A stretch of 60,009 nucleotides of DNA from a virus. The stretch spans positions 1 through 60,009 of the IMG/VR virus record IMGVR_UViG_3300017963_000053. One strand, given 5' to 3'. Of the stretch, positions 4,947 through 54,027 are shown piece after piece (within the stretch, counting starts at the first letter, position 1; each line of letters begins with the position of its first letter). The translations under genes were made by a program, and so were the position numbers. The notes under the pieces were generated by a model. The model saw only the letters and a list, made by a program, of their open reading frames with translations. It was not told where the DNA came from and searched no databases.

Positions 4947-5368
4947 TATACCCCCCTCCGCATAATATCAGAAAGCTCTATCGCCCTTACACCAACCTGC
5001 TCGGCCCATTTTGAGTCAAGCATTTCAATGGCAGCAATGTGAAAATCCTCACCCTGCATGGCGGCGATAAACTTTTTGAATTTGCTCAATTTTGTATATC
5101 CGAGATTAAACATCATATTGAATAGAACCTCCTGGCGCTTTTCATTAAGATGATATAATCCGTTTACAGATATAAACTTTTCATGATCTTCGAGGACGAT
5201 GGAAAGGTCATAAGAAAGAATAGACTCCCAAATATGATCCGGAAGCTTCGAACCCTCATGAAAGGCATGACCATAACCACCAGTAGGCACCCCGACGGTA
5301 TCGATGTAAATACTATCGCGGTATCCCTCGTGGCGCATTATATCCTGTTTAACTTTTTTCCAATTCAT
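4946..5368 (-). CDS. Endolysin, GH24 (T4-type) muramidase
   Basis: 140 aa. The N-terminal catalytic motif is E14 (HEGYR), D23 and T29 (VGVPTGGYG), with exactly 8 and 5 residues between them as in the E-D-T triad of GH24 lysozymes. It cleaves glycosidic bonds in peptidoglycan. The length is slightly short for the family, and there is no signal peptide or SAR-like anchor, so export should depend on the holin just downstream. GGGGGGTTACA is the ribosome-binding site. Confidence 0.88.
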   Translation of the reverse strand: MNWKKVKQDIMRHEGYRDSIYIDTVGVPTGGYGHAFHEGSKLPDHIWESILSYDLSIVLEDHEKFISVNGLYHLNEKRQEVLFNMMFNLGYTKLSKFKKFIAAMQGEDFHIAAIEMLDSKWAEQVGVRAIELSDIMRRGV

Positions 5369-7845: not shown

Positions 7846-10800
7846 TTATTTCTTATCTTCATATAACTTCATGACGTTCCGGACAATCTCGTTCTTCTGT
7901 CCGGTCCACCTGTCAATTTTTTCCTTCTTTTCGTCACCGTCCATAGTATCGCTAAGCCAGGCTTTGCGTATTTTTTTGTTTAGATCTGTGAGCCGGCTTC
8001 TTTCCTTATGGAATCTCTTCCGCATTGAAAGCTTTTTCCGGTGCTTTTCCTTGATCGCCTTGGCAGCCTCATAATCGCCTATCATATTAAGATGTTTGAC
8101 GTCTGCGAAAAGCTGGTCTGCCTCTTTTGTTATTTCATATAACCTACTAATATATTTGGTGTAACGGGGATTGTCGGCCTGGCGCAAGAACCTACCGATC
8201 ATTGGGTAGTCGTCTACCCTCTTTGTCGGTCGCTCAGGGTAATCCATCAACCACCTGGCGGCCGGATCCGTAAAGAAGAGAGCAAGGTTGACATATGTCG
8301 CGAAATACCCCTTTACGAACTCCTCCGCTCTTTTTGGCGGTATCCCGGCTATCTCACCAAGGGCCTTGAATGTTTCAGAGGTCCATGGCTCTGCCCTAAG
8401 CCCTGGAGATAATTTGCCAATCCGCTCTCCCTCGATTTGTCGGCCGGTGAACATGCTCTTGTTAAAGATCTGTTCTGCAATCGGTATGGCCGCCTGTGGG
8501 ACCGGATTGAAAGCGAACGTATCCATTACTGCGTGGCCCATCGTTTTTAATATGTACGTCCACGACTCATTGCCGACAGCGGAGTCTGCTGCAGCGGTCC
8601 ATAGGGTTGATCCTATGACACCAGTCTCAAAAGGCTTCGGTATACGGATATGCCAATCTCCTATCCAAAAATTATAGTATTGCCATTTCTCCCAATCCTC
8701 AAGCTCTTTATATCTTTCGTCGTCTGCGAACGCTGCCCAGGCAGCCAAAGACAGGGCGGCCAGCGCAAGGGTTTTGCCGGCGAAAACCTTCGGATTCTCT
8801 TTTGCCGCTCGGCCCATTTTATACAGGCCCTGGATCCTTGCATTAAGGAATGGAACGACTGCTGTAAAGAATGCAAGGTTGTCAGATGTTCCAGACATCT
8901 GGAAGTCCATTATATCCCGGGCGCCGAATGCGGCTTCAAGCTGTGTCTTTCCTTTTTTGCGAAGGTTGCTGTATAGCTGTACCCTTGCAGCGTTCTCTGA
9001 GGCCTCTCCTATTTCAGCCCAAAGCCTCCATGGCGCGGCGAGAACATTCCATACCTTTCCGCGCATCTTCTTTTCAGAGACACCTTTGAGGTATTTAGAA
9101 ACAGCCTTAGGATCATCTGCCCTTACATAAGAGCCAGCGAACGCATGTCCGGAAGCAAGATATTCTATGTAGTCCTTATCCTTAAATACGATCTTCGCGA
9201 CACCCTTTATTGAGTCAAGGAATGGTATAAAGTCGTTTGATATCATCCCGGTATGCAGCGTGTCCCTCAGGAAGTTTGCAGCCTTGAACGCAGGGCCAAA
9301 GGTGGCTCCCATTGTAAGCCATCTTTTTGGATATCTCAGGGCGTTCACGAGCATATTGTCTGCCCTGATTGATCTCATCAAACTCATTGCTGAAAATAGC
9401 TCCGGATCATTTACCCTGAAAAACCTGGTCTTTCCCTTATCCTTGAACCCGAGCACCGGCTCACCTGTTTTCTGCTCGATAAAGGTAGCCTTTCCAACAC
9501 CCTTGAATCTAACGGTATCTGACCATTTGACCTCTTCGATAAGGGGCTTTTCAATTTCATTACCATCATCATCGAGTGCCATGTATCCACTCGGAAGGCC
9601 AAGGTCGACAGCATTCCGGAACGCATCACCTCGAGCTTTGTTCTTGACACTCTCGACGATAAGATGATTCCAGTTTTTCATAATATTTTCAAAGGGATCT
9701 CCGATTTTCTTTTCAGAACCTTTGAGCCGTTTTATCTGTGAGGACAAAAACTTTGACCCCTGCAATGGGCCTTTTATGAATTCATTAGATGATTCCTCAT
9801 CCTCGAAAACGCGATAGAACGGGATATAGAATTCTTGCTGGAATAGCTTCCTGGAAGCCGGATCTATTAAACCGGCTTGCTGAGCTATATCAAGAATGGC
9901 ATCGTTAAATCCCTGGAATTCTTTATTAATCTCATTCCATGATTTTTTACCCTTTGGGTCGCCTATCCATTTCATCAATATATCTCTGTCAGTTTTATCC
10001 AGAAGCTTCTCGCGGCCTTCTGCGTCCAGGGCCTCTGCCCTTTTGACAACCAGCCAATAGAAAAATTTCTCGCCATCTTTACCGAGGCTTTTAACCCATG
10101 GAATAAATCCCTCGTTTTTCGTATCGACAGTAAGCACATTCCCGTCCGCATTCCATTTTAATTTCCCATGCAAAAGCTGGCCGAGGACCGACGTCGGAGC
10201 ACCAGGTATACCGCGGTGTAGCATGTAAATAATACCTTCCCCGAAGCGTGCCTTTATTGGTGCGAATCTGTCTGCAATCAGGGTTGCTCTATTTTTCCAG
10301 AATGATTTCCAGGACTTAGCAACCTTTTCCCGCATCGGGACATCGTCTCTTCCGATCTTCGCGTCTATGACAGCCTTCGCATCTTTTTCAATAATTTCAA
10401 CTGTATCGAAGCCAGGGATTATCGGGACATCGTCAACCGTATTCATATCGTACCAGGTTTGATCGACGAAGTCCTTAAAGCTATCGTATCCGGAATCCTT
10501 CATTATTCCATCAAGGGTCGACAGGTCTGTATTGTCGTCATAGATAAAATCGTTCAACTCATCCATGGCGGCCTCGTATGCGCCGTCCCTTTGATCAGGA
10601 TTCAAGATCTCCCTGTTTATCGTTTTTATAATAAGCTGTTCAGCGGAATCCGCAATTTGAGTCCGGTCCTCTCTGGTTGCATCCCAGGTAGCCGGCGCGA
10701 TATCGTCAAGCCTCGAGTCGACGAACTCCTCGAATGATCCATACCCCTCGATAGCATCATCGACGATATCATCGAGTAGCTCTGAATTTGTTTCACCAGT

Positions 10801-13800
10801 TTTCACAAAATTATCAAGGGCTTCCTTCGCGGACTCCCATGTCTCAGGCGCCTTATCTGTGAATCCGAATTTATTATCGATCGCGGTTTTTATCGGGAAA
10901 TAAAGCTCTTGAGCTATGTTCTCCCGCTCGAGCTCTGTGGCATCCTCAGGATAAAAGTCGAATTCGACCATTGGAGCGACACCAATTGGTCCGGCGACGA
11001 CGATCATATTCTCGTGAGCACGATCACCTATGAATGCGCCCTTCTCTGTACCATCGAGGCTTTCATAAAAATATCTCGGCTCATCTTTTCTATTATCCCA
11101 GGACTTGGCTGTTATCCTGAACATCCTACCGGTTTGTTTCGACTTTACCTTTTGGCCAGGCTCAAATCTCCACCCATCATAGGCGGCAACTTTTTCCCGC
11201 ATTTCAGCGACGCCGTCTGCTACCCGGGCGCGGATATCGGCAGCGAAGTCTCTCACAGGTTTTGTAATTAATTCTTCGACGTTGCTTGGAGAAACCTCGT
11301 CTTTTCTCGGAAGATCAGCAACACCAAATTTATCGTTTATTTCCTTCACCTCTTCATCGGTAAGGATTCTGTTGACCTTCATCTCACCGCTGATCAACCA
11401 CTCTCCGACCATTGTCTGGTTTGTCTTGTAACGATAATGGCCGCCCTTTGGAACCTGGTCTGTTATATGCGCGGTCCTTGGTATGATCTTCCCTGCCTTG
11501 CTTACAGAGGCACGTTTGTTTGCCTCTGACTGCCAATCGACATCGTTCGATATCTCGACCTCAGCCCATACCTGGTTGTCTGGCCGGTAATTCGGCTTTG
11601 TCAAATTGGCGTCTGTCTTTCCTCCGATATGGGAAGCAACAGGCATATCTCCGGAATGCCACCCGGGGCGGTATGCAAGTTGCCCTATCTTCGACTTTAC
11701 CTTTCCACCAACCATCGGTCCGACGTCAGCCGCAAGCCATTTCCCAACAGGTACGGTTTCATTTGCCCTGACAAACAGGGGATATAGCTTTCCATCCTTT
11801 TCTGTGAATAGCTTATAAGCCTTAACGGTCTTTTTTGGTATTAGCTTCGGATCTTCGATAACGTCAAACTCAGGATCTGCTGCGACCTGCTTCCCCTCTT
11901 CGTACTTTATTGTATTCTGGATCTCACCACCAGGAAGTAGGAAGGATTGAAATTTCCGAGCATCCTCAATCATCCCGAGCATGTTCGTTACCCAGGCATT
12001 TGCAGCGTCGACATTATCGACATACGTTATATCGTCTGGATAATGCAGATTTTTAATCGCGATCTTTTTAGAATCACCGCGAATGAATTTTTTGATATTG
12101 CCCCTAACAAGCTCAATAGATTTCTGCAGCCTTCCGATATAAACCTCACCGAGGCTTTTCGCCTTAGCACCTTTCCCGGTAACGAATACGGTCATGGATG
12201 TTAGATCTTTCGGTGCCTTCGGATCCATAATTTTCCATGGCTTCCCGTTTTTATCGATACCGTATTCGCTGAATGCCATAAAGCATCCTGACTCAGACAG
12301 GGCACATTGTTTGCAGCTAAAGAAATATGTGCGCTCTCCTGCGTCGCATGGGCATCCGGTCTTACGCATATTCTCTGGAAGGGCATCGTGTAGCTCATTG
12401 CTGGCGGCGAGGACAAGCTGCAGGGCGTCCTTATCCATCAATTCCTGCATTGCCTTTATCTCGCTCTTGTCTGTCATTAACCAGGCATTCGCGATACCGT
12501 GCTTTTTCATGTTCTCGGCGAGTTTTTTCGGCCCATAAAATTTGTAAAGATCTGCATCTATCGATCCCATTTTGATAAACGGGGCGTTTGGTTGCGACTT
12601 TAATTTTTTCAGCATATCATGGTGCCGGCTAAAAATATGAATAGGCCGGTCAAGCAATTTGGCCAATTCATTCATTCCCTCAACCTGTTCGTCAGTAACA
12701 AGGTCGCCGGATCCGAGCATCCTGACAAATGGGAGCTCGGTCTTATCCTTTGCCATAACCTCTGATGCAACGATCTTTGCCCATCCCTTAGGATCTGTCA
12801 AAATATGTATGGTGGATCTCAGCGCTTTTTTAACGGCGCTCATTCTAATCATCGAGGCAGCCGCATAGCACTCCTTGCATGGAGTTGTCGGATGGCATGT
12901 CGCGAGTAGGAAGTCGGCCGACATTCCAGCTTTACCATTATTTCCAAGGGTTTGCGTCTTTGATTCGGTATCATACATCTTGCCATTCCGGAGTCCATGC
13001 AGATGGTCAAGGAATTTTGTCCGCTCCTTTCCGCTGAGGCCTTTAGAGTCTGCAATCTGTTCGATCGTTTTTGTTTTATCCAATAGATTAGCGACCTGCC
13101 CGTCCTTAATCACCCGATAAATTTCATCCAATAAATCATAGGTGGTAATAGATCTTGTGAGCTCCCTCTTATTTTTCACATACTTTCCAGGGACTTGCAC
13201 AGACTTCATGGTTGGGCCAAACAGCGTCTCGAACGCTTCAAGCTCTTTGCTGAGCCGGTTGTTGACTACACCAAACTCTTCATTCTCGAAGTCAACTTCC
13301 CACCCTCTTTCCTTAATATCAAATAAAATCTCAGGGTTACCAGCGGCTCCAACAGGAAGCCCGGGCGCACCAATATTCTGAGCAAGATCCGAATCCATCA
13401 GATCTGCCTTTGGTTTTGGGGCTTCTATTTTATCCAGGACTTCTTTAGCATAGACATCGAATTCGCCCATGCCGGATGTATATTCGCCGGCACGATATTG
13501 ATTATACTGGCGAACCATTTTGGCCATAAGCTTTTGGGCAGTCTCGATCTCATCGAAATATACCCTTTGGAATTTTTTTGGCTGAGCCAGAAGGGCATCC
13601 CCCATTTTCTTGATAACGTCTGACACCATTTCGACGATTCTCTCAAAAAGGGTTTTGTCCTCTTTCATTACCTCGCCAAGGAATTTCTCATCGAACAGGG
13701 AGGATCCCAGGAATTCTTGAACGAATTCATCGAATACCGCGGCTTCGATATCCTTCTGTTTTAATTGATCAACCGGGGTACCAGTTTTTCTTGAAAGCTG

Positions 13801-16800
13801 CTTCGCGTAGAAGTTTCTCTTTTTATTAAGAAATCCGCTCCAATCGTTTTTATCCTTCATCTTCCATAGGATAGATTTTAACAGCCCGTATTTCTTTGGC
13901 ATTGTCTTTTCTATCCTGTGGCCCATTTCATGGCCGGCAACCTGCAGCCCAGGGGTTTCGTTCCGGACATTTATAAATATGAATCCATTATCCCGATCGA
14001 TATCCTTAATCGTTATTGTATTCCCATTCGTGTTATTCAGGAATTTATGGTCTGTTTTAAAGAACACAACATTATCGAATCCAAAAACAACCTTCATGAA
14101 TTCGACAATCGCTTCTCCGTTTCTTGCATCCTTAGGCGCGACAATATCAAAATCGTCCTCGGTTAATTGCATTTCCTCTGGCCATCTTTGAGACATTTTG
14201 ATGTAATGCTCTTTGATGTTCTCCGGAGTCTTTTTTACTGGAGCTTCGATAACTTCCTGGACAGGCTGAGGCTTTTTAGGATCTCCCTCTTTGAGCCATT
14301 TTTTAAATTCGTCAACAGACTTTTTGGTAACACGCATATTGTTAAAATCAAAGCCCTTTGGATAATGGGCTCTGTATGCCATCTGAGCCTGCTTCCTCGT
14401 TTTATACCCGAGCATTACCTTTGGTTCATCGAATGTACCATCCTCATTCAACTGATCGATAATGTAAACATTCGGGGAGGTTACATCTTCTCCGACGAAT
14501 ACATCGATATTGTCTCCGTCCTTTGATTTTCTACCTTTTTTGAAGTATCCATAAACCGCTTTCATCCGAACACGCCATGAGGGTTTTTTACCTGGAGGCA
14601 CATTTTCTTTTCTGGTCGATCCCTTCGCGTTCTCAATTACAATAGGCATGCCATGGATCTCGGCTTCACCCTTCCTGTAGGTGCCATCCTTTATTGCCTG
14701 GTATGTAGGATTAGGATCTGTTATACTGGCTGCTTCATTAAGCTGCTTTGCCGTGGTGACTTTTTGTGGACCCTTTTGAACCGCGGGTCCAGCGCTCGGT
14801 GTTTCACGATAAATTCTTTTCCCGAATTTATCCACAAAGCCCTCCCGGGCCTCGCCAGACTCCATCATTTCACGCTGTTCAGGGGTGGCTTTATTGTAAA
14901 TCTCACCGGACGTCGCACCGCTTATTCTGGTACCGTCTGGAAATTCGAAGAAATTCCTTTTCCCTGGAGGAGATATTCGCTCCGGCTTTTTCGCCGCTGG
15001 CTCTTCGGCGGCCTCACCCTCGATCATCTTTTGCCGCTTTACTGCCGCACGCTTTACCAGGTCAGGTGCTTCCTGTTCAACGTCAGCGGGAGTTGTGTCG
15101 ATAACTGCCTGGGCCATTTGGGCCGGCGTAACCGGTGCTGCCTCTATGGCTGGCGCTTCTGCCGGCGCCGTGATGGGCTCAGCCGCTGGCTCTGGAGCAG
15201 GCTCTGTGACGACAGCCTCTTCCCCCATCGTCTGGTCAATCTGGCGTTGCCTGGCCTGTGCTGGTGTTTCCTGGCCCTGGATATATTGCTGCCTCTCAGC
15301 GGGGGTCCGCAATGGACCTTGTGGTGGTATTGGTGGCGGTACGTCTGGCCTATTCTCGGCGAACAGACCTGTCCCGGGGGCAACTGGCTCCTCGATAGCG
15401 GCGATATCCTCTGGAGTAATTTCCTGCCCAGGAATAACCCCGGCGCCTTCAACCGCTGGCTCAGGTATCGCTCCAGGTGTTTGCGCTGCCTGCGCTGCCT
15501 GGGCCTCCTTTATTCCCTTATCGAGAATTTCAGCCGCATCCCTCGAGGACTTAACCGTGGTGAGCTCACCAGATTCGTCACGCTTCCCGGTGAGCATATC
15601 GAATGCCTTCCTGAATTTGCCGGCTTCCTTTGTGCCCTTAGCATCTACCGGTTTAGCGTCAGCACCACCAAGTAATAGACCATACGGGGCGGCGGCCGCA
15701 CCCTCGGGGAGAGCTTCCTTTATACCCTTCAAGGAAAGGTCCCAAACCATTCCGGCTTGATCTTCTATATTGGCATTTAGAAATTTCTTTCTATTTTCAC
15801 CAATTGCAAAATGTCCGGTCAATTCATCAGGGACACCCTGCAGAGTTTCAGTAACGCCCTCTGTTAATGAGCTAACCAATCTCGAAGCGATAAACCTTTT
15901 TATACCTGCACCAAGTCCAGGCGCACGCATCATCCAACCGAATGATAACGCCTCCATTGGCGCCTGTATACCGGCGTTGATAAGCGCTGAAACCATAGCC
16001 TCTTTTGGAGAGGCTCCATTCGAAATATTTTCCTCGTATGCATTACCAGCAATATTTACAAACATCACGGCGCCTGAGAGGAACTTCCCGCCGGCCCTAT
16101 GCGCGAGAATCTGCATTCCTATTTGTGGCGCCATCCCAACGGTGTTCTCAATCCATTGCTTGAACGAGTCTTTTTCTTCGAGGTCAAGGATGTATCTTAA
16201 ATCCCTTTTTAAATTCTTTGACTCTGACGCCGCACCAATGGCGTCATAGGCCATATCGCCCAATGCGCCCACCGTACCTGTTGTCGCCGACGTTAATTTA
16301 TCCCATAACCCATCTGATTTACTCGGTATTACGGAAGGCTTATCCCTATCGAATCCGGCTACATCCATAAATCCTTTTCCGAGCCATGGCGCAGAACGAG
16401 CAATATTCTTTGATGTTTCAATCATGGGACGCTCTAACTCAACGTCCTCGAGATATTCTGGCAGAATAGCCTTGATGGCCTTGCTTCTAAGATCCTGTCC
16501 ACCGGTTATCTCAGATAGCGGTCGCACCCCTGAAATTGCTTCAATTGGTGCCCTTGCGAGGATTGGCAAGTTTTGCATTGCAGCGCTTATACCGATTTCC
16601 AATTTTGGCTTTGTCTGTATCCAAGGGACTTCGATATCGTCCCTGACATTGGCGACAAACTGGTCGTATGCATCTGGACCAGGTGGGGCAACTGGCGCAT
16701 TTGATTCTGGTGTAGGGATCGCCCCCTCTGGAGGCATGGTAGGCAACTCTGGTGTAGGGGTGGGATCTTCGCGCAGATTATCTGCTACGAATTTATCATA

Positions 16801-16812
16801 GAAATCAGACAT
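7846..16812 (-). CDS. Giant polyvalent internal virion/ejection protein, 2,988 aa
   Basis: The largest gene (15% of the genome). Visible parts in order: a Pro/Ala-rich N-terminus with a twice-used YDxFVA..R.D motif (residues ~5 and ~49); hydrophobic patches near 230-300; a Pro/Ala/Glu linker (~430-640); an inorganic-pyrophosphatase-like domain of the large-polyvalent-protein type (~705-845); a zincin peptidase with HEMGH at 961-965; a Cys-cluster domain (~1295-1515) resembling phage Gp88 (PCKECYA, SGD, CPCD..CKQC); a conserved block with RPGWHSGDMP (~1660-1830); a region before ~2700 with a membrane-like helix; an LPD38-like segment (~2765-2820); and a basic coiled C-terminus. Such proteins are packed in the head and injected. 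Functions of the domains in the cell are inferred. Confidence 0.85.
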   Translation of the reverse strand: MSDFYDKFVADNLREDPTPTPELPTMPPEGAIPTPESNAPVAPPGPDAYDQFVANVRDDIEVPWIQTKPKLEIGISAAMQNLPILARAPIEAISGVRPLSEITGGQDLRSKAIKAILPEYLEDVELERPMIETSKNIARSAPWLGKGFMDVAGFDRDKPSVIPSKSDGLWDKLTSATTGTVGALGDMAYDAIGAASESKNLKRDLRYILDLEEKDSFKQWIENTVGMAPQIGMQILAHRAGGKFLSGAVMFVNIAGNAYEENISNGASPKEAMVSALINAGIQAPMEALSFGWMMRAPGLGAGIKRFIASRLVSSLTEGVTETLQGVPDELTGHFAIGENRKKFLNANIEDQAGMVWDLSLKGIKEALPEGAAAAPYGLLLGGADAKPVDAKGTKEAGKFRKAFDMLTGKRDESGELTTVKSSRDAAEILDKGIKEAQAAQAAQTPGAIPEPAVEGAGVIPGQEITPEDIAAIEEPVAPGTGLFAENRPDVPPPIPPQGPLRTPAERQQYIQGQETPAQARQRQIDQTMGEEAVVTEPAPEPAAEPITAPAEAPAIEAAPVTPAQMAQAVIDTTPADVEQEAPDLVKRAAVKRQKMIEGEAAEEPAAKKPERISPPGKRNFFEFPDGTRISGATSGEIYNKATPEQREMMESGEAREGFVDKFGKRIYRETPSAGPAVQKGPQKVTTAKQLNEAASITDPNPTYQAIKDGTYRKGEAEIHGMPIVIENAKGSTRKENVPPGKKPSWRVRMKAVYGYFKKGRKSKDGDNIDVFVGEDVTSPNVYIIDQLNEDGTFDEPKVMLGYKTRKQAQMAYRAHYPKGFDFNNMRVTKKSVDEFKKWLKEGDPKKPQPVQEVIEAPVKKTPENIKEHYIKMSQRWPEEMQLTEDDFDIVAPKDARNGEAIVEFMKVVFGFDNVVFFKTDHKFLNNTNGNTITIKDIDRDNGFIFINVRNETPGLQVAGHEMGHRIEKTMPKKYGLLKSILWKMKDKNDWSGFLNKKRNFYAKQLSRKTGTPVDQLKQKDIEAAVFDEFVQEFLGSSLFDEKFLGEVMKEDKTLFERIVEMVSDVIKKMGDALLAQPKKFQRVYFDEIETAQKLMAKMVRQYNQYRAGEYTSGMGEFDVYAKEVLDKIEAPKPKADLMDSDLAQNIGAPGLPVGAAGNPEILFDIKERGWEVDFENEEFGVVNNRLSKELEAFETLFGPTMKSVQVPGKYVKNKRELTRSITTYDLLDEIYRVIKDGQVANLLDKTKTIEQIADSKGLSGKERTKFLDHLHGLRNGKMYDTESKTQTLGNNGKAGMSADFLLATCHPTTPCKECYAAASMIRMSAVKKALRSTIHILTDPKGWAKIVASEVMAKDKTELPFVRMLGSGDLVTDEQVEGMNELAKLLDRPIHIFSRHHDMLKKLKSQPNAPFIKMGSIDADLYKFYGPKKLAENMKKHGIANAWLMTDKSEIKAMQELMDKDALQLVLAASNELHDALPENMRKTGCPCDAGERTYFFSCKQCALSESGCFMAFSEYGIDKNGKPWKIMDPKAPKDLTSMTVFVTGKGAKAKSLGEVYIGRLQKSIELVRGNIKKFIRGDSKKIAIKNLHYPDDITYVDNVDAANAWVTNMLGMIEDARKFQSFLLPGGEIQNTIKYEEGKQVAADPEFDVIEDPKLIPKKTVKAYKLFTEKDGKLYPLFVRANETVPVGKWLAADVGPMVGGKVKSKIGQLAYRPGWHSGDMPVASHIGGKTDANLTKPNYRPDNQVWAEVEISNDVDWQSEANKRASVSKAGKIIPRTAHITDQVPKGGHYRYKTNQTMVGEWLISGEMKVNRILTDEEVKEINDKFGVADLPRKDEVSPSNVEELITKPVRDFAADIRARVADGVAEMREKVAAYDGWRFEPGQKVKSKQTGRMFRITAKSWDNRKDEPRYFYESLDGTEKGAFIGDRAHENMIVVAGPIGVAPMVEFDFYPEDATELERENIAQELYFPIKTAIDNKFGFTDKAPETWESAKEALDNFVKTGETNSELLDDIVDDAIEGYGSFEEFVDSRLDDIAPATWDATREDRTQIADSAEQLIIKTINREILNPDQRDGAYEAAMDELNDFIYDDNTDLSTLDGIMKDSGYDSFKDFVDQTWYDMNTVDDVPIIPGFDTVEIIEKDAKAVIDAKIGRDDVPMREKVAKSWKSFWKNRATLIADRFAPIKARFGEGIIYMLHRGIPGAPTSVLGQLLHGKLKWNADGNVLTVDTKNEGFIPWVKSLGKDGEKFFYWLVVKRAEALDAEGREKLLDKTDRDILMKWIGDPKGKKSWNEINKEFQGFNDAILDIAQQAGLIDPASRKLFQQEFYIPFYRVFEDEESSNEFIKGPLQGSKFLSSQIKRLKGSEKKIGDPFENIMKNWNHLIVESVKNKARGDAFRNAVDLGLPSGYMALDDDGNEIEKPLIEEVKWSDTVRFKGVGKATFIEQKTGEPVLGFKDKGKTRFFRVNDPELFSAMSLMRSIRADNMLVNALRYPKRWLTMGATFGPAFKAANFLRDTLHTGMISNDFIPFLDSIKGVAKIVFKDKDYIEYLASGHAFAGSYVRADDPKAVSKYLKGVSEKKMRGKVWNVLAAPWRLWAEIGEASENAARVQLYSNLRKKGKTQLEAAFGARDIMDFQMSGTSDNLAFFTAVVPFLNARIQGLYKMGRAAKENPKVFAGKTLALAALSLAAWAAFADDERYKELEDWEKWQYYNFWIGDWHIRIPKPFETGVIGSTLWTAAADSAVGNESWTYILKTMGHAVMDTFAFNPVPQAAIPIAEQIFNKSMFTGRQIEGERIGKLSPGLRAEPWTSETFKALGEIAGIPPKRAEEFVKGYFATYVNLALFFTDPAARWLMDYPERPTKRVDDYPMIGRFLRQADNPRYTKYISRLYEITKEADQLFADVKHLNMIGDYEAAKAIKEKHRKKLSMRKRFHKERSRLTDLNKKIRKAWLSDTMDGDEKKEKIDRWTGQKNEIVRNVMKLYEDKK

Positions 16813-26498: not shown

Positions 26499-27416
26499 TT
26501 AACCCTTCCGAACGTACATGTCGACCAGGGATTCCGGTTTCAGAACCTCGTAACCGTACACGTTCAGACCGCGCACCAGGGTACCAAAGGTACTTTCGGC
26601 TCGCAGGCTTTCCATTTTGGTCATTTGGGCGGCGAAAGAAATCGCGCTCTTATGACCGGCAATCGGATGATAGGCGCGGAATGCACCATCGGCCACGCTT
26701 GTCAGCAAGTTGCTGGCATAGATGGTGAACCGATCGATCATGCCGATCCGTCCATTTCGCAGGATGCTGGTGCCGTCGCCGGCCAGGGAAGCATCCTTAA
26801 GGTCGGACTTCAGAATCATACCGCACATCCACGGAGGCAGTACCATCCATCTGGAGTCCTCAGGAATATTCTGTTCGTCGAGGACAGTACCGACGTCCAC
26901 GATGAAGTCCAGAATGTTGGCCTTGGTAATTGCAACCGGGGCACCGGTCACGCCAAGGTCGAAGGAAGCGGAGTCCGCACCCGCGGTGGCGCCTTGGTTG
27001 GCTGCGTCCGCATCGGCGTAAACGTCTCCCAGGAATTCACGATCGACGACGATCTTCATTTGCTGACCGGCGTCTCTGGACCAGGAGTCCATCAGGGCGA
27101 TATCGGTTTGATGCTTGTCGATATCATCGCAGATCATATTGAAATACTTGGCTTTATCGATCAGGAGCTCTTTATTCGGAGCTTCGGGCCGTTGGATCTG
27201 CAGGCTCTGGCCTTTGTTATAATCACGGATGATGATGTCAGGCACAGTCCGGATAATGACTTTGTCGCCTTTATCCTTGATCTCACCTTCATAATCCGTA
27301 TTCGAAATTGCAGCGATCACGGTCGCGGCGTAAAACTTAACGAGCAATTTGCCCGACCAAATCTCCGGAATAAAAGTACCGGAGTATTGCGGGGTACCAG
27401 GGGCGGCTGGAATCAT
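26499..27416 (-). CDS. Major capsid protein (HK97 fold), 305 aa
   Basis: N-terminal sequence PEIWSGKLLVKFYAATVIA followed by DYEGEIKDKGDKVIIR is typical of phage coat proteins with an HK97 fold; the middle contains VDREFLGDVYADADAANQ and an A-domain-like section, and the C-terminus is beta-rich. It follows the scaffold gene, as in P22-like phages. An upstream in-frame ATG is rejected because GGAGG lies between it and the ATG at 27416, at ideal spacing. Confidence 0.88.
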   Translation of the reverse strand: MIPAAPGTPQYSGTFIPEIWSGKLLVKFYAATVIAAISNTDYEGEIKDKGDKVIIRTVPDIIIRDYNKGQSLQIQRPEAPNKELLIDKAKYFNMICDDIDKHQTDIALMDSWSRDAGQQMKIVVDREFLGDVYADADAANQGATAGADSASFDLGVTGAPVAITKANILDFIVDVGTVLDEQNIPEDSRWMVLPPWMCGMILKSDLKDASLAGDGTSILRNGRIGMIDRFTIYASNLLTSVADGAFRAYHPIAGHKSAISFAAQMTKMESLRAESTFGTLVRGLNVYGYEVLKPESLVDMYVRKG

Positions 27417-27486
27417 TGTATTTCCTCCCAAAATTTAGAGAATTATTATTTGCGGTAGCGGGAGGATCAGAAAGGCCGGTCAAGCC

Positions 27487-38469: not shown

Positions 38470-38546
38470 TGGTCGCGGGAGGAGGATTTGAACCTCCGGC
38501 CTGATGGTTCCAAACCACCCGCGCTACCAGGCTGCGCTACCCCACG
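38470..38546 (-). tRNA. tRNA-Pro (anticodon TGG)
   Basis: 77 nt with encoded CCA. Acceptor CGTGGGG / TCCCGCG, D-stem GCGC/GCGC, anticodon stem GGTGG/CCATC with loop TTTGGAA (TGG reads CCA/CCN), T-arm GGAGG-TTCAAAT-CCTCC. All arms pair well. Confidence 0.93.
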
Positions 38547-38549
38547 ACA

Positions 38550-38625
38550 TGGAAGAGGGTAAAGGAGTTGAACCTTTAACATCCGGCGTCAAAGACCGGT
38601 GCTCTGCCGATTGAGCTAACCCTCT
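38550..38625 (-). tRNA. tRNA-Gln (anticodon TTG)
   Basis: 76 nt with encoded CCA. Acceptor AGAGGGT/ACCCTCT, D-stem GCTC/GAGC, anticodon stem CCGGT/GCCGG with loop CTTTGAC (TTG), T-arm AAAGG-TTCAACT-CCTTT. Three bases from the tRNA-Pro gene. Confidence 0.93.
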
Positions 38626-38633
38626 GATATTAC

Positions 38634-38704
38634 TGGAGCCAGATGCAGGAGTTGAACCCGCCCTCTGTGCTTACAAAACACATTAGCCCCCAGGGCAATC
38701 TGGC
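38634..38704 (-). tRNA. tRNA-Thr (anticodon TGT), very short D-arm
   Basis: 71 nt with encoded CCA. Acceptor GCCAGAT/ATCTGGC, anticodon stem TGTGT/GCACA with loop TTTGTAA (TGT), T-arm GCGGG-TTCAACT-CCTGC. The D-arm is GCCC-TGG-GGGC, a loop of only three bases instead of the usual 7-11, so the D-loop/T-loop contact cannot be normal. Confidence 0.82.
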
Positions 38705-38705
38705 C

Positions 38706-38781
38706 TGGTAGCCGATCCTGGACTTGAACCAGGGACCACAGCATTATCGGTGCTGCGCTCTACCAACTGAGCTAATCGGCT
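38706..38781 (-). tRNA. tRNA-Ile (anticodon GAT), C at position 33
   Basis: 76 nt with encoded CCA. Acceptor AGCCGAT/ATCGGCT, D-stem GCTC/GAGC, anticodon stem CAGCA/TGCTG, loop CCGATAA, T-arm CCTGG-TTCAAGT-CCAGG. Position 33 is C, whereas U33 is almost invariant in elongator tRNAs. Two bases separate it from tRNA-Thr. Confidence 0.88.
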
Positions 38782-38786
38782 CCATT

Positions 38787-38963
38787 TTATGCTGCCTTAA
38801 ATTCTCCGCACGGATCGCCATCACGTTTAACACATGGATATCTGCTTCTTGATCCATCCTTTTCTGTCTGACATTCCGGAGGGAATCTGACACAAAACCC
38901 CTTGTAAATCGACATCTCTCTATAGTACCGACAATCCTCACATTTATCCTGTGGCTTCGGCAT
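38787..38963 (-). CDS. Cys-rich small protein, 58 aa
   Basis: Found by translating the gap between tRNAs. It starts MPKPQDKCEDCRYYRE and has six cysteines in a CxxC...C...C...C...C pattern, so it is likely to bind zinc or an iron-sulphur centre. AGGTG lies 6 bases before the ATG. It ends 5 bases before tRNA-Ile. Unknown function. Small proteins with this CxxCxYY... style are common in phages. Confidence 0.7.
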   Translation of the reverse strand: MPKPQDKCEDCRYYREMSIYKGFCVRFPPECQTEKDGSRSRYPCVKRDGDPCGEFKAA

Positions 38964-39061
38964 AATACACCTACCCTTTCAGGGTAGACTTACAAGCTTC
39001 CGATTTCATTCAGTATACGTTAGATCAGGATGAGGGTTAGTCCACCCTCGTTTAAATGATG

Positions 39062-39135
39062 CGAGCAGGCGTCCGGTTTCACCGGCCATCACAAGGATTT
39101 GCAGATCCTTCAAGCCTCCACGGATTTACCCGCCC
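39062..39135 (-). tRNA. Degenerate tRNA-Cys-like element (GCA)
   Basis: Acceptor GGGCGGG can pair with CCTGCTC (two G-T pairs). The anticodon arm AAGGA/TCCTT has an 8-base loop TCTGCAAA holding GCA. The T-arm is atypical (CCGG-TGAAA-CCGG, 5-base loop) and no CCA is encoded. It may be a decayed or non-canonical tRNA rather than a working one. Confidence 0.35.
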
Positions 39136-39230
39136 TTGGCACTCGGGAGTCCTCTGTAAACCGCAACGGCTGCAACCAATTACGACTCCAGCAGGAAGCG
39201 ACCTATGCCCTCTATGGTTAATGTTTAAAT

Positions 39231-39319
39231 TGGTAGCCTGGCAAGGAGTTGAACCTTGCACGCCTATCCTGGAGCGACCAGGGTCTTTGCACGCGACTAC
39301 TAACATACTGAGCCAGCCG
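39231..39319 (-). tRNA. tRNA-like element with intact 3' half, isotype unclear
   Basis: The 3' half is a good tRNA: T-arm CAAGG-TTCAACT-CCTTG, acceptor strand CCAGGCT, A, CCA. The 5' acceptor strand matches at only five of seven positions, and the central part has a CCTGG-TCGCT-CCAGG hairpin plus TGCAAA but no regular D or anticodon arm. At 89 nt it could be a class II tRNA with a long variable arm, or a decayed tRNA. Confidence 0.35.
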
Positions 39320-39368
39320 ACAACCGGTATGGACTGACTGTTCTGCTTTGTCCAGGCCATAAAGTATT

Positions 39369-39453
39369 TGGTAGCGCGGGTTGGAGTTGAACCAACACAG
39401 GCCTAAGCCCACAGATTTACAGTCTGCTACCCTCGCCTATGGGTTGCCACGCT
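39369..39453 (-). tRNA. tRNA-Tyr (anticodon GTA)
   Basis: 85 nt class II tRNA with encoded CCA. Acceptor AGCGTGG/CCGCGCT, anticodon stem GCAGA/TCTGT with loop CTGTAAA (GTA), a long variable arm (GGGCTTAGGCC) as expected for Tyr, T-arm GTTGG-TTCAACT-CCAAC. Its 5' end overlaps the TAG stop of the upstream small gene by two bases. Confidence 0.92.
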
Positions 39454-46659: not shown

Positions 46660-47380
46660 TTTGCTCCTCCTTTATCAGTCCGTATATGAGAGCGTTATAA
46701 TTCCGGATATCTCCCAGGGCGTCCATTATGGATTCTCCCTTTACCTTTAATTTCCCCTTCTCAACATAGGTGCGTACCCTTTGCATCTTATCCCTCATCC
46801 TGATCATGACACCAATCACAGGATGAACACCAAGTCCTTCGCTATCTCTGAAATTGGCATATGGATCTCCGGACCCTCCGGTATAATCATGATTTTTTTC
46901 CTTCATTATACCGTCGCCGTATTCGTCAATTTCATGAGCGCAATACATCGGATTTGGGTATCCGTTTATGAATTCGGGGATTGATTCGTCGGCGTTAGAC
47001 GTCCATCCACCCCAAATATCCGGTGTAATATCTTCATGTTGCGGTGGCTCAGAAATAATTTCGAACATCGGCCTTACTATCGTATCTTCTTTTTCGGAAT
47101 TCTTCGATACGCTGGCATAATGATAGCAATATTCAGCGAGGTCCCTCGGCGTTAATGTGTTTATCAATAAGGATTTTGTTTTGAATCCGGCACCTTCCAG
47201 GTCCACAATAAGTTTAGTTATCTCATCTTCTTTAAGAAGCGTTTCTATATGTGAATCCCTAAAATCTCGCTCGTGGATTAGAAATTTTTCATTACCAGAC
47301 AGAACATAAATCTCTGCCATCACCATTTGTATAGCCTTATCCCAAGTCGGATCTTTAAACAAATCTTTTGAGTAATCCAT
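46604..47380 (-). CDS. Nucleotide modification associated (NMAD1/DUF1599-like) protein, 258 aa
   Basis: The C-terminal third (about 155-240) has KNHDY......DPYANFRDSEGLG, RMRDKMQRVRTYVE and a MDALGDIRNYNALIYG helix, the pattern of DUF1599/NMAD1 proteins, which occur in phages beside base-modification genes and may bind nucleotides. The N-terminal 150 residues are unrecognised. It overlaps the resolvase and the sigma-like gene. Together with ThyX it suggests changes to pyrimidine metabolism. Confidence 0.65.
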   Translation of the reverse strand: MDYSKDLFKDPTWDKAIQMVMAEIYVLSGNEKFLIHERDFRDSHIETLLKEDEITKLIVDLEGAGFKTKSLLINTLTPRDLAEYCYHYASVSKNSEKEDTIVRPMFEIISEPPQHEDITPDIWGGWTSNADESIPEFINGYPNPMYCAHEIDEYGDGIMKEKNHDYTGGSGDPYANFRDSEGLGVHPVIGVMIRMRDKMQRVRTYVEKGKLKVKGESIMDALGDIRNYNALIYGLIKEEQNAESETPLPEGEGSERQA

Positions 47381-47936
47381 CTTTATCCCCCCTTAATATA
47401 TCCATAACGGTTACGGCAATGCCATATGCTTGCCAGATATCATCATGAAATGCGTGGCCATCTGTGTTGAACCATGTGTCCTTGGCCTCCCTGATCATTG
47501 CTGTGCGCTTGATTTCACCAGAATGGCACCTGTGCCATGCATCCGGTGCGAATCTCTTTATGAGAGCGTCCCTGATCTCTTTGTCGCCTCCAGATTTTTT
47601 ACGGGTCAGGTGGTGGATCTGCCTCGATCGTGATACCCAAAAGGTATTTGATTTACAACTCCTTGCATGGTGGGCGCCGGAGAACAGTCCGGACCATATT
47701 GCAGCATCTGAAACTTCCCTGCCGGCCCATTTCCTTGAAATGATATATTCCATTGCGATTGTTTCCGGCACGACTTTAGGAAAACCTGGTCCTACCGTGA
47801 AGCCATTAAATCTATCAAATAATTTTTCATTTTCTAAAATTCCAGATTCAGCCGGCTGGAGGTTTTCGTATATTGTGCAAAACGCTGTTTTCTCAGATCC
47901 CGGGTCTATTCCCATCACCAACGTTGGAATTGTCAT
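47355..47936 (-). CDS. RuvC-like Holliday junction resolvase, 193 aa
   Basis: The first strand has MGIDPGSEKTAFC with the catalytic Asp11; Glu63 lies in PETIAMEYI; a C-terminal HDDIWQAYGIAV gives the last acidic residues of an RNase H-like RuvC fold. It should cut branched DNA before packaging. ATG at 47936 has GGGAGG six bases upstream; a longer start is rejected. It overlaps the Cys-rich gene upstream. Confidence 0.8.
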   Translation of the reverse strand: MTIPTLVMGIDPGSEKTAFCTIYENLQPAESGILENEKLFDRFNGFTVGPGFPKVVPETIAMEYIISRKWAGREVSDAAIWSGLFSGAHHARSCKSNTFWVSRSRQIHHLTRKKSGGDKEIRDALIKRFAPDAWHRCHSGEIKRTAMIREAKDTWFNTDGHAFHDDIWQAYGIAVTVMDILRGDKDGLLKRFV

Positions 47937-48105
47937 ACTGTGCCTCCCAATTATCGCAATACTCATCAAATACTAAAAACATGCAGCGCTTTGCATTCGT
48001 GGCGTCACGATAATAAAAACATTCTTTCTGGCTATCGTGGCTACTATGTGCACAGCACTCGCTTAACCCCCAACCCTTTTTGCAATGGCTTATTACCAGG
48101 CTCAT
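47893..48105 (-). CDS. Cys-rich small protein, 70 aa
   Basis: Seven cysteines and several His residues (CCAHSSHD, CFYYRD, EYCDNWEAQ) suggest a zinc-binding protein. AAGGA lies upstream of the ATG. It overlaps the RuvC-like start by 44 bases and lies 26 bases after the hairpin at 48131. Unknown function. Confidence 0.6.
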   Translation of the reverse strand: MSLVISHCKKGWGLSECCAHSSHDSQKECFYYRDATNAKRCMFLVFDEYCDNWEAQYDNSNVGDGNRPGI

Positions 48106-48130: not shown

Positions 48131-48155
48131 GGAGGGGGGTGACCAGCCCCCCTCC
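48131..48155 (-). other. G-rich intercistronic hairpin
   Basis: Perfect 9-bp stem GGAGGGGGG/CCCCCCTCC with a 7-base loop, between the end of the secreted-protein gene and the next gene. No T-run follows. It is one of several such hairpins placed after single genes and may protect the mRNA 3' end. Confidence 0.5.
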
Positions 48156-48190: not shown

Positions 48191-49195
48191 TTAATGATCG
48201 ATAGGATTATAGCCCGATCTTAACTGAGGCTTTTTTACCTCAAGGATACCTGTGCTATAACATTCATAAACTCCCTCGGGGAGAAGCTCATTCCTGGACT
48301 TTGCCTTTCCGTATCCAGTAGATGTGCTCGGCGTTATAATGCTATCACCGCTCGAGGACGCCACGCTCCCCTGGCCGCCGAAGCCGATACCCCAGGAAAC
48401 ACCCTCAAGATGTTTTCCCTCTGCTCCCTCGTATACGGGAATCATATGGGTTACCCCGTTCTCCATTGCGGATTCTGCTGCTTTACCAACGACGCCTGTG
48501 GCAACAGCATCCAAACCGTCGACGGTAACATATATGTAACCCATAAACTTGCCAGCCTTACCGTATGAAATACTGGAAGTAGGCTCGCCCTGGAACACGA
48601 GTCCTGGGGTCACAACGGCATCTGGAGCTCCGTCGGCGAGTGCCTTGGCCTGCTTTTTTGTAATAAAACCAAGACGTTCAAGGATATTATACCCCTGGAC
48701 CTTGGCCTTGAATGCCTTGGCTGCTCCATCAACCTGGCCATCCGGAACAGTCGGGCCGGCCGCGGACGGGTGGTTCGCCTTGTTCTCTGCCTCTTCGAAT
48801 ATTACCGTCTGGCTGACACCCTCGTTATTCGCTGATTGATTTTGCCCCTGGATCTGCTTCTGGTCTTGTGCCTGGACCTGCTTTTGATCCTGCTTTTGGT
48901 GCTGCTTTTGGTCCATGTCGATCTCGTTATCAACATCGACAATATTAGCGTTCAGGTTCAGGTTCGTGTTTTTATTGCTGTTGGTATTTGTGTTCAGGTT
49001 CGTGTTTAGATTCGTGTTCGTATTCTTACTGGACGAATCCACCGTAACAATCGTCATACCGGGGTCTGACGATTCATCCGGAACACATTTCCACCCCTTT
49101 TTAACCTGGCCAGGAGGACAGTCTGCGGCCATAACCGACGTCGCGAACATCAAGGAAACAAACAATACAAGCATAATAACAAAATTCTTTTTCAT
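48191..49195 (-). CDS. Secreted Asn/Gln-rich low-complexity protein, 334 aa
   Basis: A Sec signal peptide (basic MKKN, hydrophobic IMLVLFVSLMFA, AXA-type VMA-A cut near residue 23), then CPPGQVKKGWKCVP with two cysteines, an Asn/Thr repeat tract (NTNLNTNLNTNTN) and a Gln/Lys tract (DQKQHQKQDQKQVQ, ~90-125), and a folded C-terminal domain (~150-334). It is predicted to be exported. Such N/Q-rich tracts are prone to self-assembly. Its own promoter, leader and 3' hairpin suggest strong, separate expression. Function unknown; surface, periplasmic or virion-bound roles are possible. Confidence 0.7.
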   Translation of the reverse strand: MKKNFVIMLVLFVSLMFATSVMAADCPPGQVKKGWKCVPDESSDPGMTIVTVDSSSKNTNTNLNTNLNTNTNSNKNTNLNLNANIVDVDNEIDMDQKQHQKQDQKQVQAQDQKQIQGQNQSANNEGVSQTVIFEEAENKANHPSAAGPTVPDGQVDGAAKAFKAKVQGYNILERLGFITKKQAKALADGAPDAVVTPGLVFQGEPTSSISYGKAGKFMGYIYVTVDGLDAVATGVVGKAAESAMENGVTHMIPVYEGAEGKHLEGVSWGIGFGGQGSVASSSGDSIITPSTSTGYGKAKSRNELLPEGVYECYSTGILEVKKPQLRSGYNPIDH

Positions 49196-49321
49196 TTTTT
49201 TACCCCCCCATATAATTTTTTGATCGTCCGCAGGGGAGCTCTCTACTTAGGATTTCGCTACACCCTGCCGGTGCTGTACGCACATCAACCCATAAACGGC
49301 TTTTGCGGACTATTTGAGAAA
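49196..49321 (-). ncRNA. Structured 5' leader of the secreted-protein gene
   Basis: The leader contains a 7-bp closing helix GTCCGCA/TGCGGAC around about 70 bases, with an inner GTGC-GTACA-GCAC hairpin. GGGGGGG is the ribosome-binding site. The size and closed form resemble a riboswitch or other cis-acting RNA. No known class was matched with confidence. Confidence 0.5.
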
Positions 49322-49353
49322 CATTATAACACCTTTTTTGCGTTAATGGTGCA
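49322..49353 (-). promoter_or_regulatory. TGCACCATTAA-N14-TATAATG promoter (copy 4)
   Basis: On the - strand: TGCACCATTAA (343-353), 14 bases, TATAATG (322-328): both words match the consensus exactly. The start would be near 49315, giving a leader of about 120 bases for the secreted protein. It sits directly after the ssb gene. Confidence 0.72.
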
Positions 49354-49364
49354 TTAATAGAACA

Positions 49365-49799
49365 TTAAAACGGAATATCATCATCCTCTGGACCAGGGTA
49401 GCTACCACCTTCTGGAGGATCTGCCTGGACAGGGCTCTTTTCATATCCGGAATCACCACGACCGAGATCGATAAAATTCATATCTCTGAGGACAAACTCT
49501 GTCGTGTAATTCTTCCGGCCGTCGTTACCCTCCCACGAACGCGTCTGTACCTGGGCCTCGACATATATCCGGCTTCCCTTTGAAAGGTAGTCCTTGCATA
49601 TGTCTGCCCATTTTTTGAATGCGACAATACGGACCCACTCCGTCTGTTTCTTTTGCTCGCCGCCGCCCTTCGGAGTCCATACCTGGGTTACAGCGATCGA
49701 AAAATTTGCTACGGGATCTCCGTCTCTCGTATATCTGACCTCGGGATCTCCCCCCAACCTACCAATAAACATGCATTTGTTAAGACCTTTTTCTCCCAT
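49365..49799 (-). CDS. ssb: Single-stranded DNA-binding protein
   Basis: 144 aa with an OB-fold: KCMFIGRLGGDPEVRYT, the VANFSIAV strand, TEWVRIVAFKKWAD and KGSRIYVEAQVQTRSW. The C-terminus ends DDDIPF, the acidic tip used to recruit other replication proteins. It coats single-stranded DNA during replication and recombination. AAAGGAGG lies six bases before the ATG. Confidence 0.95.
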   Translation of the reverse strand: MGEKGLNKCMFIGRLGGDPEVRYTRDGDPVANFSIAVTQVWTPKGGGEQKKQTEWVRIVAFKKWADICKDYLSKGSRIYVEAQVQTRSWEGNDGRKNYTTEFVLRDMNFIDLGRGDSGYEKSPVQADPPEGGSYPGPEDDDIPF

Positions 49800-52391: not shown

Positions 52392-53089
52392 GAATTATCT
52401 CCGGTCTGTTTGGCCCATTCCGTCTCGAATTCGGAAAGTTGTCTGTTCATTTCCTCTACCTGCTCAGCGTATAGCTGGTCGTCGCTCTTTCTGAAAAACT
52501 TTGGATGGTAATCCTTTTGGCGTTTTATCCATGTCCTCCAGGTCGCCAGGAAATTAGCTCGCTTTACACCCTGGTCCTCGTGCCAATCACAAAAGCCATC
52601 GTAAACCTCACGATAACCCCAAAGCATACCGAGCTCCTTTGCGACCTCGATAAATTTTGGAAAAATCTTACGGTCCTTTTCGTCCCTGATCAAAAGCATG
52701 CACGACGGGATATATTTTTTTACTCCAGACCGATTCCCGCAAACGATTTCTTTGTAACCAAAAAACCCATCGTCTTTTTTTTCAGATTCCGGCTGCACCT
52801 TGTTTTTATTTTTATTATTATATAGTAATACCGGCTCCAATTCAAAAGCACCCCTTACAGAGGGGTAAGCCTTTCCTTTTATTACAGATATTTTATCTTG
52901 TGTTTGGAATGATTCAATACCACAATTAGAGGTTAATGTGAACCCATACTGGCTGGTCTTTTTTACATTTATTAATAATGATCCCAGGCAGATAGTAACC
53001 TCTTCATCGTAAGGAAAAGCCTCTGTAGCCAGACCCCCACCCTGGCTCGCATCGAGAATCAACTGAACCATTTTACCATTAGCACCCAT
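52388..53089 (-). CDS. Replication initiator/helicase-loader-like protein, 233 aa
   Basis: A C-terminal DnaT/replisome-organiser-like segment (WHEDQGVKRANFLATWRTWI) resembles phage replication proteins that recruit the helicase. Upstream is an unrecognised N-terminal domain. It directly precedes the helicase and overlaps it, as usual for initiator-helicase pairs. A DNA-binding origin domain is not visible. Confidence 0.65.
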   Translation of the reverse strand: MGANGKMVQLILDASQGGGLATEAFPYDEEVTICLGSLLINVKKTSQYGFTLTSNCGIESFQTQDKISVIKGKAYPSVRGAFELEPVLLYNNKNKNKVQPESEKKDDGFFGYKEIVCGNRSGVKKYIPSCMLLIRDEKDRKIFPKFIEVAKELGMLWGYREVYDGFCDWHEDQGVKRANFLATWRTWIKRQKDYHPKFFRKSDDQLYAEQVEEMNRQLSEFETEWAKQTGDNS

Positions 53090-53541
53090 TATAACCCCCC
53101 GTTTTCTAAGGTTTTTGTTAAATCAAAATCATTTACATCGTCGACTTCATTCGGAAGCGGGATCCAAATATTCCACTCCGTACTGGCCCAATGACGAATG
53201 GCCGCGAGGTAGTCCTCCATTTGTGATGTATTAAGGACAGTCGTCGATAAGGTTATCGGCAAACCAGGGACGGGCTCTATAGTTAAAAACATACTGGCCA
53301 TGGTTGAATGCATATCGTCGACTGAGTACCCAAAATAATTACACAGGTACTTCCTTAGAACGACTCCACGATAGTATGCGTTCTGTTCATTCGACCTTAT
53401 CGTTTTTTTCGTCGCCTTCTCAAGAGAAACGAATACTCTATCACCAGGCTTAAATTGAGCCTTGTGCTTAGAGTATAGGTCTGGACGGTCAAGCCTCGGA
53501 TGGCCCTGGTCGTCGATCGTTGCTGAAAATTTAATTCCCAT
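53089..53541 (-). CDS. Conserved phage protein (NinB/HNH-region type), 150 aa
   Basis: Contains KTIRSNEQNAYYRGVVLRKY and STTVLNTSQMEDYLAAIRHW, a pattern seen in widespread phage proteins that accompany recombination or replication genes; the resemblance to NinB-like proteins is loose. ATG at 53541 lies 6 bases after a TATCAT element (copy 5 of the conserved promoter), so a leaderless start is possible. No ribosome-binding site is seen. Confidence 0.6.
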   Translation of the reverse strand: MGIKFSATIDDQGHPRLDRPDLYSKHKAQFKPGDRVFVSLEKATKKTIRSNEQNAYYRGVVLRKYLCNYFGYSVDDMHSTMASMFLTIEPVPGLPITLSTTVLNTSQMEDYLAAIRHWASTEWNIWIPLPNEVDDVNDFDLTKTLENGGL

Positions 53542-53839
53542 TTTTAAATGATACCACAACTTTGTCGATAATGGTGCATGGATCGTCAGACAAATACAAA
53601 AAGGCCAGGTGCTCAGCGATAGCGTCCTCCTCATCCTCCCTTATCGGGCGCCCGAGCGAGATTTCTATCCGCTCCAAAAGCATCAAGGCCAGCATCCGGC
53701 GAAAATATTTTTCTTTTGCGCTTCTTAGGTTTCTCTTCGCTATGTCATATGATATCCCGAGGTCCTCAGCTATCTCATTCACAGGTACAAGCTCTTCTGA
53801 CTCCGGTTTTTTTCCTGGTTTTGATCCTGGTACAATCAT
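53531..53839 (-). CDS. HTH regulator (sigma-region-4-like), 102 aa
   Basis: VNEIAEDLGISYDIAKRNLRSAKEKYFRRM forms a helix-turn-helix in the style of sigma region 4 or a small repressor. Ribosome-binding site GGGGGGTTAAA. The start overlaps the stop of the small membrane protein by four bases. A regulator of replication or early promoters is possible. Confidence 0.65.
   Translation of the reverse strand: MIVPGSKPGKKPESEELVPVNEIAEDLGISYDIAKRNLRSAKEKYFRRMLALMLLERIEISLGRPIREDEEDAIAEHLAFLYLSDDPCTIIDKVVVSFKNGN
53547..53578 (-). promoter_or_regulatory. TGCACCATTAA-N14-TATAATG promoter (copy 5), inside a coding end
   Basis: On the - strand: TGCACCATTAT (568-578), 14 bases, TATCATT (547-553), within the last codons of the HTH gene. 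The predicted start falls at the ATG of the next gene (53541). The coding context makes chance possible, but spacing is exact. Confidence 0.45.
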
Positions 53840-54002: not shown

Positions 54003-54027
54003 GGGGGGAGCTACCGGTGCTCCCCCC
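54003..54027 (-). other. Intercistronic hairpin, GGGGGAGC stem
   Basis: 9-bp stem GGGGGGAGC/GCTCCCCCC with a 7-base loop between the WYL_2-like gene and the small membrane protein. The stem core is the same as at 4480 and 55272. No T-run follows, so it is probably not a complete terminator. Confidence 0.6.

What the first reader, a model, noticed from the sequence alone, without database searches (positions are those of the whole stretch)
48191..49195. Exported Asn/Gln-rich, prion-like protein with its own promoter, leader and 3' hairpin
The gene has a Sec signal, two N/Q-rich tracts and a folded C-terminal domain. It is separated from its neighbours by a perfect TGCACCATTAA promoter, a structured leader and a G-rich hairpin. 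Low-complexity N/Q tracts favour self-assembly. A secreted assembly made by infected cells (surface coat, adhesion, trap for debris or for competing phages) would be new.
Basis: partly seen in the sequence, partly recalled or inferred. Interest (0 to 1): 0.75.

Follow-up and report, generated by a model that had tools for sequence, protein, structure and literature searches.

The report
Exported alternating-Asn/Gln phage protein
This uncultivated bacterial virus makes, from its own promoter in the middle of its DNA-copying genes, an apparently exported protein of an undescribed family in which every second amino acid over long stretches is asparagine or glutamine; it probably acts on the envelope of the infected cell, but what it does there is unproven.

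Summary
The gene (window 48191-49195, minus, 334 aa) is real: Sec-type signal, low-complexity tracts, C-terminal domain, a recurrent phage promoter and a perfect hairpin. The "structured leader" folds no better than shuffles. The tracts are more specific than "N/Q-rich": Asn at every second residue 14 times (58-84), then Gln at every second residue 13 times (96-120), never reached in 20,000 shuffles. Four diverged homologues were found in uncultivated phages; three sit in the same slot, between SSB and a RuvC-like gene. All five keep the leader, the alternating-Gln tract, an ANN motif and the C-terminal domain. Another related phage fills the slot with an unrelated exported Gly-rich protein. 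All five syntenic slots have their own extended -10 promoter. No real match in Pfam, NCBIfam, PHROGs, PDB sequences, annotated phages, plasmids or bacterial genomes. Best reading: an early-class accessory (moron-like) gene whose exported product works in the infected cell's envelope, most likely against superinfecting phages, with the alternating tract as extended spacer or assembly module. Prion behaviour is not supported: the conserved Gln tract is heavily charged. Function is inferred.

The parts
49322..49353 (-). Promoter TGCACCATT-N13-TGn-TATAAT-G, extended -10 type with a fixed upstream box
   Evidence: Six identically spaced sites in the 103-kb contig, none expected
49196..49316 (-). 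5' leader with G-run Shine-Dalgarno; not unusually structured
   Evidence: Folding z -0.30; no Rfam match
48191..49195 (-). Gene for the exported alternating-Asn/Gln protein, 334 aa
   Evidence: ORF; homologues; purifying selection in the L030/L032 pair
49127..49195 (-). Signal peptide, residues 1-23 (cleavage after VMA)
   Evidence: Rule-based screen; four of the five relatives tested (three of four homologues and the L029 analogue) pass the same screen; L032 fails the rule but has a similar leader, MRKLFVILTMVAALAFAPVAMA
48944..49024 (-). Asn tract, residues 58-84, Asn at every second residue 14 times
   Evidence: 0 of 20,000 shuffles; present only here and, shorter, in L111
48836..48910 (-). 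Gln tract, residues 96-120, Gln at every second residue 13 times
   Evidence: 0 of 20,000 shuffles; conserved in all four homologues with 11, 9, 7 and 5 steps
48818..48835 (-). Conserved motif SANNEG, residues 121-126
   Evidence: A122, N123, N124, G126 and Q129 invariant in five sequences
48248..48703 (-). C-terminal alpha/beta domain, residues about 165-316, with Gly-rich insertion at 256-305
   Evidence: Alignments and models
48131..48155 (-). Perfect GC hairpin after the gene, probable terminator or processing site (no clear U-run)
49365..49799 (-). SSB, upstream neighbour
   Evidence: Pfam SSB E 1.8e-31
47355..47969 (-). RuvC-like Holliday junction resolvase, downstream neighbour
   Evidence: PHROG 1770 E 1.2e-4
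47893..48105 (-). Small Cys-containing ORF between the gene and the resolvase, also found in relatives

Best explanation
The gene is an accessory (moron-like) transcription unit set between the SSB and RuvC-like genes of a phage related to BPP-1-type podoviruses. It is read from an early-class phage promoter. Its product goes through Sec out of the cytoplasm, loses its signal, and works in the periplasm or on the surface of the infected cell. The alternating Asn/Gln segment acts as an extended spacer or assembly element that holds out or clusters the small C-terminal alpha/beta domain. The likeliest purpose is to change the envelope of the infected cell so that further phages cannot adsorb or inject (superinfection exclusion). 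Shown by sequence: the unit, the family, the alternation, the synteny and the selection. Inferred: export, early timing, spacer or assembly role, and exclusion.
For: Leader fits Sec export here and in the relatives. Own promoter of a shared class; other members precede the exonuclease/RecT-like operon and the tRNA array. Own extended -10 and Shine-Dalgarno in all five syntenic slots. Same slot between SSB and RuvC-like in four phages, and an unrelated exported Gly-rich protein in that slot in a fifth, as expected of an exchangeable accessory gene. Purifying selection, pN 0.20 against pS 0.75. Lysis genes lie elsewhere, so a role in lysis is unlikely.
Against: No experiment, no homologue of known function, no signal predictor run. 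Conservation in four related phages is steadier than typical for a moron. G+C does not differ from the neighbours. Exclusion is only the commonest role of exported phage accessory proteins (own knowledge).
Confidence: 0.35

Rival explanations
1. A secreted self-assembling protein: the alternating tracts stack as beta strands with one Asn/Gln face and form fibres or a coat around infected cells, whatever the purpose of that coat.
For: Strict period-two pattern in both tracts, conserved for Gln in all homologues. The Asn tract alternates with Thr and Leu, a beta-prone choice. The slot is always filled by an exported low-complexity protein.
Against: The conserved Gln tract is heavily charged and scores -0.29 on the recalled prion scale; no stretch passes on the smoothed score. 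The Asn tract is not conserved. The models show no beta structure in the tracts, at very low confidence.
Confidence: 0.2
2. The tract is only a hydrophilic spacer, as the dipeptide repeats of TonB are, and the protein is an ordinary periplasmic or surface protein acting through its C-terminal domain, for example on envelope stress signalling.
For: Charged, variable-length tract followed by a conserved domain. The predicted order of strands and helix resembles the RcsF/DUF1471/YbjQ fold, and FvfA ranks first in both PDB fold searches.
Against: Fold matches are not significant (E 0.25-0.89); profile comparisons with YbjQ, RcsF and BhsA fail.
Confidence: 0.3
3. A virion component: the protein is exported only in appearance and is packaged or attached to particles.
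For: Low-complexity tracts are frequent in phage structural proteins (PMC5694896).
Against: Sits in the replication module behind an early-type promoter, far from the structural genes; has a cleavable-type signal.
Confidence: 0.07
4. The tracts are a by-product of DNA repeat slippage in a decaying gene.
For: Part of the Gln tract is a 12-base DNA repeat, CAAAAGCAGnnn.
Against: Intact homologues at 30-37% identity with the same alternation, mixed codons in the tracts, and purifying selection in the tract itself, pN 0.23 against pS 0.88.
Confidence: 0.02

Closest known systems
Phage proteins with prion-like domains (survey PMC5694896)
   Same: N/Q-biased composition in a phage protein
   Different: The survey stresses tail, baseplate and lysis proteins; this is an apparently exported non-structural protein with strict period-two tracts and charged residues between
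Exported superinfection-exclusion or moron proteins of phages (general knowledge)
   Same: Own promoter, apparent export, accessory position, exchangeable slot occupant
   Different: No sequence relation to any known one; long alternating tracts; no phenotype known
Curli-type functional amyloids (general knowledge)
   Same: Exported, regularly spaced Gln/Asn
   Different: No curlin match in Pfam; period of two residues rather than about 22; no dedicated export partner seen among the neighbours scanned
RcsF / DUF1471 (BhsA, SrfN) / YbjQ fold (PMC4092069)
   Same: Predicted strand-helix-strand-strand core in an exported protein, with a disordered segment before it
   Different: No significant sequence, profile or fold match; a Gly-rich insertion of about 45 residues
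TonB dipeptide-repeat spacer (general knowledge)
   Same: Two consecutive blocks of alternating residues between an N-terminal signal and a small C-terminal domain
   Different: Asn/Gln instead of Glu-Pro/Lys-Pro; no TonB match

Membership tests
Prion-like domain protein | N/Q-rich stretch well above background | tested here: met
   27 of 60 residues N or Q, next ORF 15
Prion-like domain protein | Positive prion propensity with few charges and prolines | tested here: not met
   Smoothed maximum -0.01 (threshold 0.05); Gln tract -0.29 with 9 of 31 charged or His (scale recalled from memory)
Prion-like domain protein | Self-propagating aggregation | not testable with these tools
   Needs an experiment
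Curli functional amyloid | Curlin repeats | tested here: not met
   No Pfam match other than a sub-cutoff low-complexity hit
RcsF/DUF1471/YbjQ fold | Fold match to a solved member | tested here: inconclusive
   No member among hits; FvfA first at E 0.25-0.89
RcsF/DUF1471/YbjQ fold | Profile match to a family member | tested here: not met
   hhalign against single E. coli sequences, probability below 1%
Phage moron / accessory unit | Own promoter and end signal between other genes | tested here: met
Phage moron / accessory unit | Present or absent, or exchanged, among close relatives | tested here: met
   Unrelated exported protein in the slot of L029
Superinfection-exclusion protein | Blocks infection by other phages | not testable with these tools
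   Needs an experiment
T4 spackle | Profile match | tested here: not met
   PHROG 1586 at E 0.096 over signal and low-complexity residues only
Phage lysis protein | Member of the lysis cassette | tested here: not met
   Holin 4509-4946 and endolysin 4946-5368 lie far away

The most novel reading that the evidence does not exclude
A virus-encoded, early-made, secreted protein whose alternating Asn and Gln tracts stack into ordered beta fibres that coat the infected cell and exclude competing phages: a viral functional amyloid from a family without known cellular relatives.
Probability: 0.1. Interest if true: 0.8.

Novelty: new variant of a known kind. Interest (0 to 1): 0.45.

Why it matters
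It defines an undescribed family of apparently exported phage proteins with a very regular, testable feature (one residue type at every second position) at a fixed genomic slot. If the protein assembles or excludes phages, it adds a new way in which a phage remodels the cell it occupies. The slot, with exchangeable exported low-complexity proteins behind their own promoter, is a place to look for more such factors.

Tried and rejected
The whole protein as query in viral contigs found only the window's own virus; relatives came through the DnaB neighbour and then the family alignments. Two family alignments against 84,980 prokaryotic genomes gave none (pattern-based, so not exhaustive). Annotated phages and plasmids: nothing real. 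Pfam Med3 (below cut-off) and the NCBIfam hits conj_TIGR03752 and aggregation-promoting factor fall on the low-complexity tracts and were rejected. Leader as riboswitch: no Rfam match, z -0.3. Phosphatase-based scan: apart from the phages already found, the new phages lack the SSB slot. Family profile in 37 further phage records: none. Four named phages and the other loci hold no comparable exported alternating protein. Viral structure library: nothing. Literature searches for exported N/Q phage proteins found only the general prion-like survey.

Full report
What the window is. The window belongs to a virus of bacteria. It equals positions 22-60030 of IMGVR_UViG_3300028840_004913 and has an exact direct terminal repeat of 123 bases, so it is probably one complete circular unit of 59,886 bases. 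Terminase, portal or adaptor, and capsid proteins match phages such as BPP-1 and its relatives. Holin and endolysin lie at 4.5-5.4 kb. No tyrosine integrase was found. The host is unknown.

The observation. ORF 48191-49195 (minus) encodes 334 residues. It starts with a Lys-Lys, hydrophobic leader ending VMA-AD, which fits Sec export. No signal predictor was available; a rule-based screen picks it as the only plausible coding ORF with such a start. Its N/Q content is far above every other ORF. Shuffling the same residues never reached this in 20,000 trials. Codons are mixed, although part of the Gln tract is a 12-base DNA repeat.

Expression signals. Upstream lies TGCACCATT-N13-TGn-TATAAT. Sites with exactly this spacing occur at window 560(+), 38408(-), 41191(-), 49353(-) and 53578(-), and once in the second, related genome of the longer contig, against none expected. 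One precedes the exonuclease/RecT-like operon and one the tRNA array, which suggests early reading; that is an inference. The leader is not unusually structured and matches no Rfam family. The 9-bp GC hairpin at 48131-48155 is real by count, but it lacks a clear U-run, so termination is likely, not certain.

Relatives. The protein has no real match in Pfam, NCBIfam, PHROGs, PDB sequences, annotated phages, plasmids or 84,980 prokaryotic genomes. Going through the DnaB neighbour, three diverged phages were found that encode homologues (phmmer E 4e-17 to 1e-15 with the C-terminal part). All three carry the gene directly after SSB and before a RuvC-like gene with one small ORF between. The phosphatase-like gene before SSB is shared by the window, L029, L030 and L032; I did not detect it in L031, where another ORF stands there. 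The family profile added a fifth member in another module (L111, next to an ORF that looks like a fused uracil-DNA glycosylase and polymerase).

What the family keeps. All five have the leader, an alternating Gln tract (13, 11, 9, 7 and 5 steps), the ANN motif and the C-terminal domain; the Asn tract is shared only with L111. The shortest Gln run, in L032, is only mildly unlikely (0.005). The L030/L032 pair shows purifying selection in the low-complexity part (pN 0.23, pS 0.88) and in the rest (pN 0.19, pS 0.74), with synonymous sites saturated. In L029 the same slot holds a different exported protein of 141 residues, Gly-rich with a Cys pair near its end. Upstream of the slot gene all five syntenic phages have an extended -10 and a G-run Shine-Dalgarno. 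So the slot, not only the gene, is conserved as a separate unit for an exported low-complexity protein.

Structure. AlphaFold2 with five sequences gives low confidence overall (44 for the whole protein, 56 for the domain of L032), disorder for the tracts, and a credible core in the C-terminal domain: three strands, a helix, a strand, a Gly-rich disordered insertion of about 45 residues, and a last strand. Foldseek finds nothing significant; FvfA ranks first in both PDB searches at E 0.25-0.89. The order resembles RcsF/DUF1471/YbjQ (PMC4092069), but profile comparisons with E. coli YbjQ, RcsF and BhsA fail. This stays a lead.

Mechanism. Most likely this is a moron-like early gene for an exported protein that acts in the envelope. 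Exclusion of other phages is the commonest role of such genes (own knowledge), and I commit to it at low confidence. The alternating tract is either an extended spacer or a stacking element. True prion behaviour is unlikely: the conserved Gln tract is full of Lys and Asp. The prion-propensity values used there were written from memory and should be rechecked. Amyloid-like stacking of the Asn tract remains possible.

Verdict. The feature is real, conserved within a small group of uncultivated phages, undescribed in the libraries searched, and its function is inferred. Interest is moderate: the feature is regular and testable, but nothing yet shows assembly or exclusion.

Noticed in passing
window 1-60009; IMGVR_UViG_3300028840_004913 (L005-L008): The 103-kb contig runs from this genome into a second phage about 75% identical in gene order and sequence; in another metagenome the two are separate contigs sharing a 123-base end. 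Probably an assembly join through a shared stretch; tandem proviruses are not excluded.
   Followed up: partly
window 26499-27431: The major capsid protein is 99% identical (DNA 92%) between the two phages, while most other proteins are 50-90%: recent exchange or very strong constraint.
   Followed up: partly
window 560(+), 38408(-), 41191(-), 49353(-), 53578(-): A phage promoter class TGCACCATT-N13-TGn-TAtnAT with constant spacing; the upstream box is not a TTGACA-type -35. The site at 53578 suggests that the gene called 53089-53634 really starts near 53541.
   Followed up: partly
L029:6271-6696: Unrelated exported Gly-rich protein (141 aa) in the same slot of a related phage, with its own promoter.
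   Followed up: partly
L029:6713-6778, L030:10675-10739, L031:6109-6171: After the slot gene these phages have an RNA of about 65 nt closed by 8-10 bp with inner stems, no Rfam match; possibly a structured regulatory RNA or terminator.
   Followed up: partly
window 7846-16812: A 2988-residue polyvalent protein with inorganic pyrophosphatase-like and LPD38 domains.
   Followed up: no
window 38470-39453: Five tRNA genes (Pro, Gln, Thr, Ile, Tyr) behind a promoter of the same class; the Gln tRNA reads CAA, yet the Gln tract uses mostly CAG.
   Followed up: no
window 54003-54027: Second perfect GC hairpin of the window, GGGGGGAGC-7 nt-GCTCCCCCC, function not examined.
   Followed up: no
L111:7113-7499: Lipoprotein-like ORF (128 aa) directly before the family member in L111, a possible partner.
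   Followed up: no
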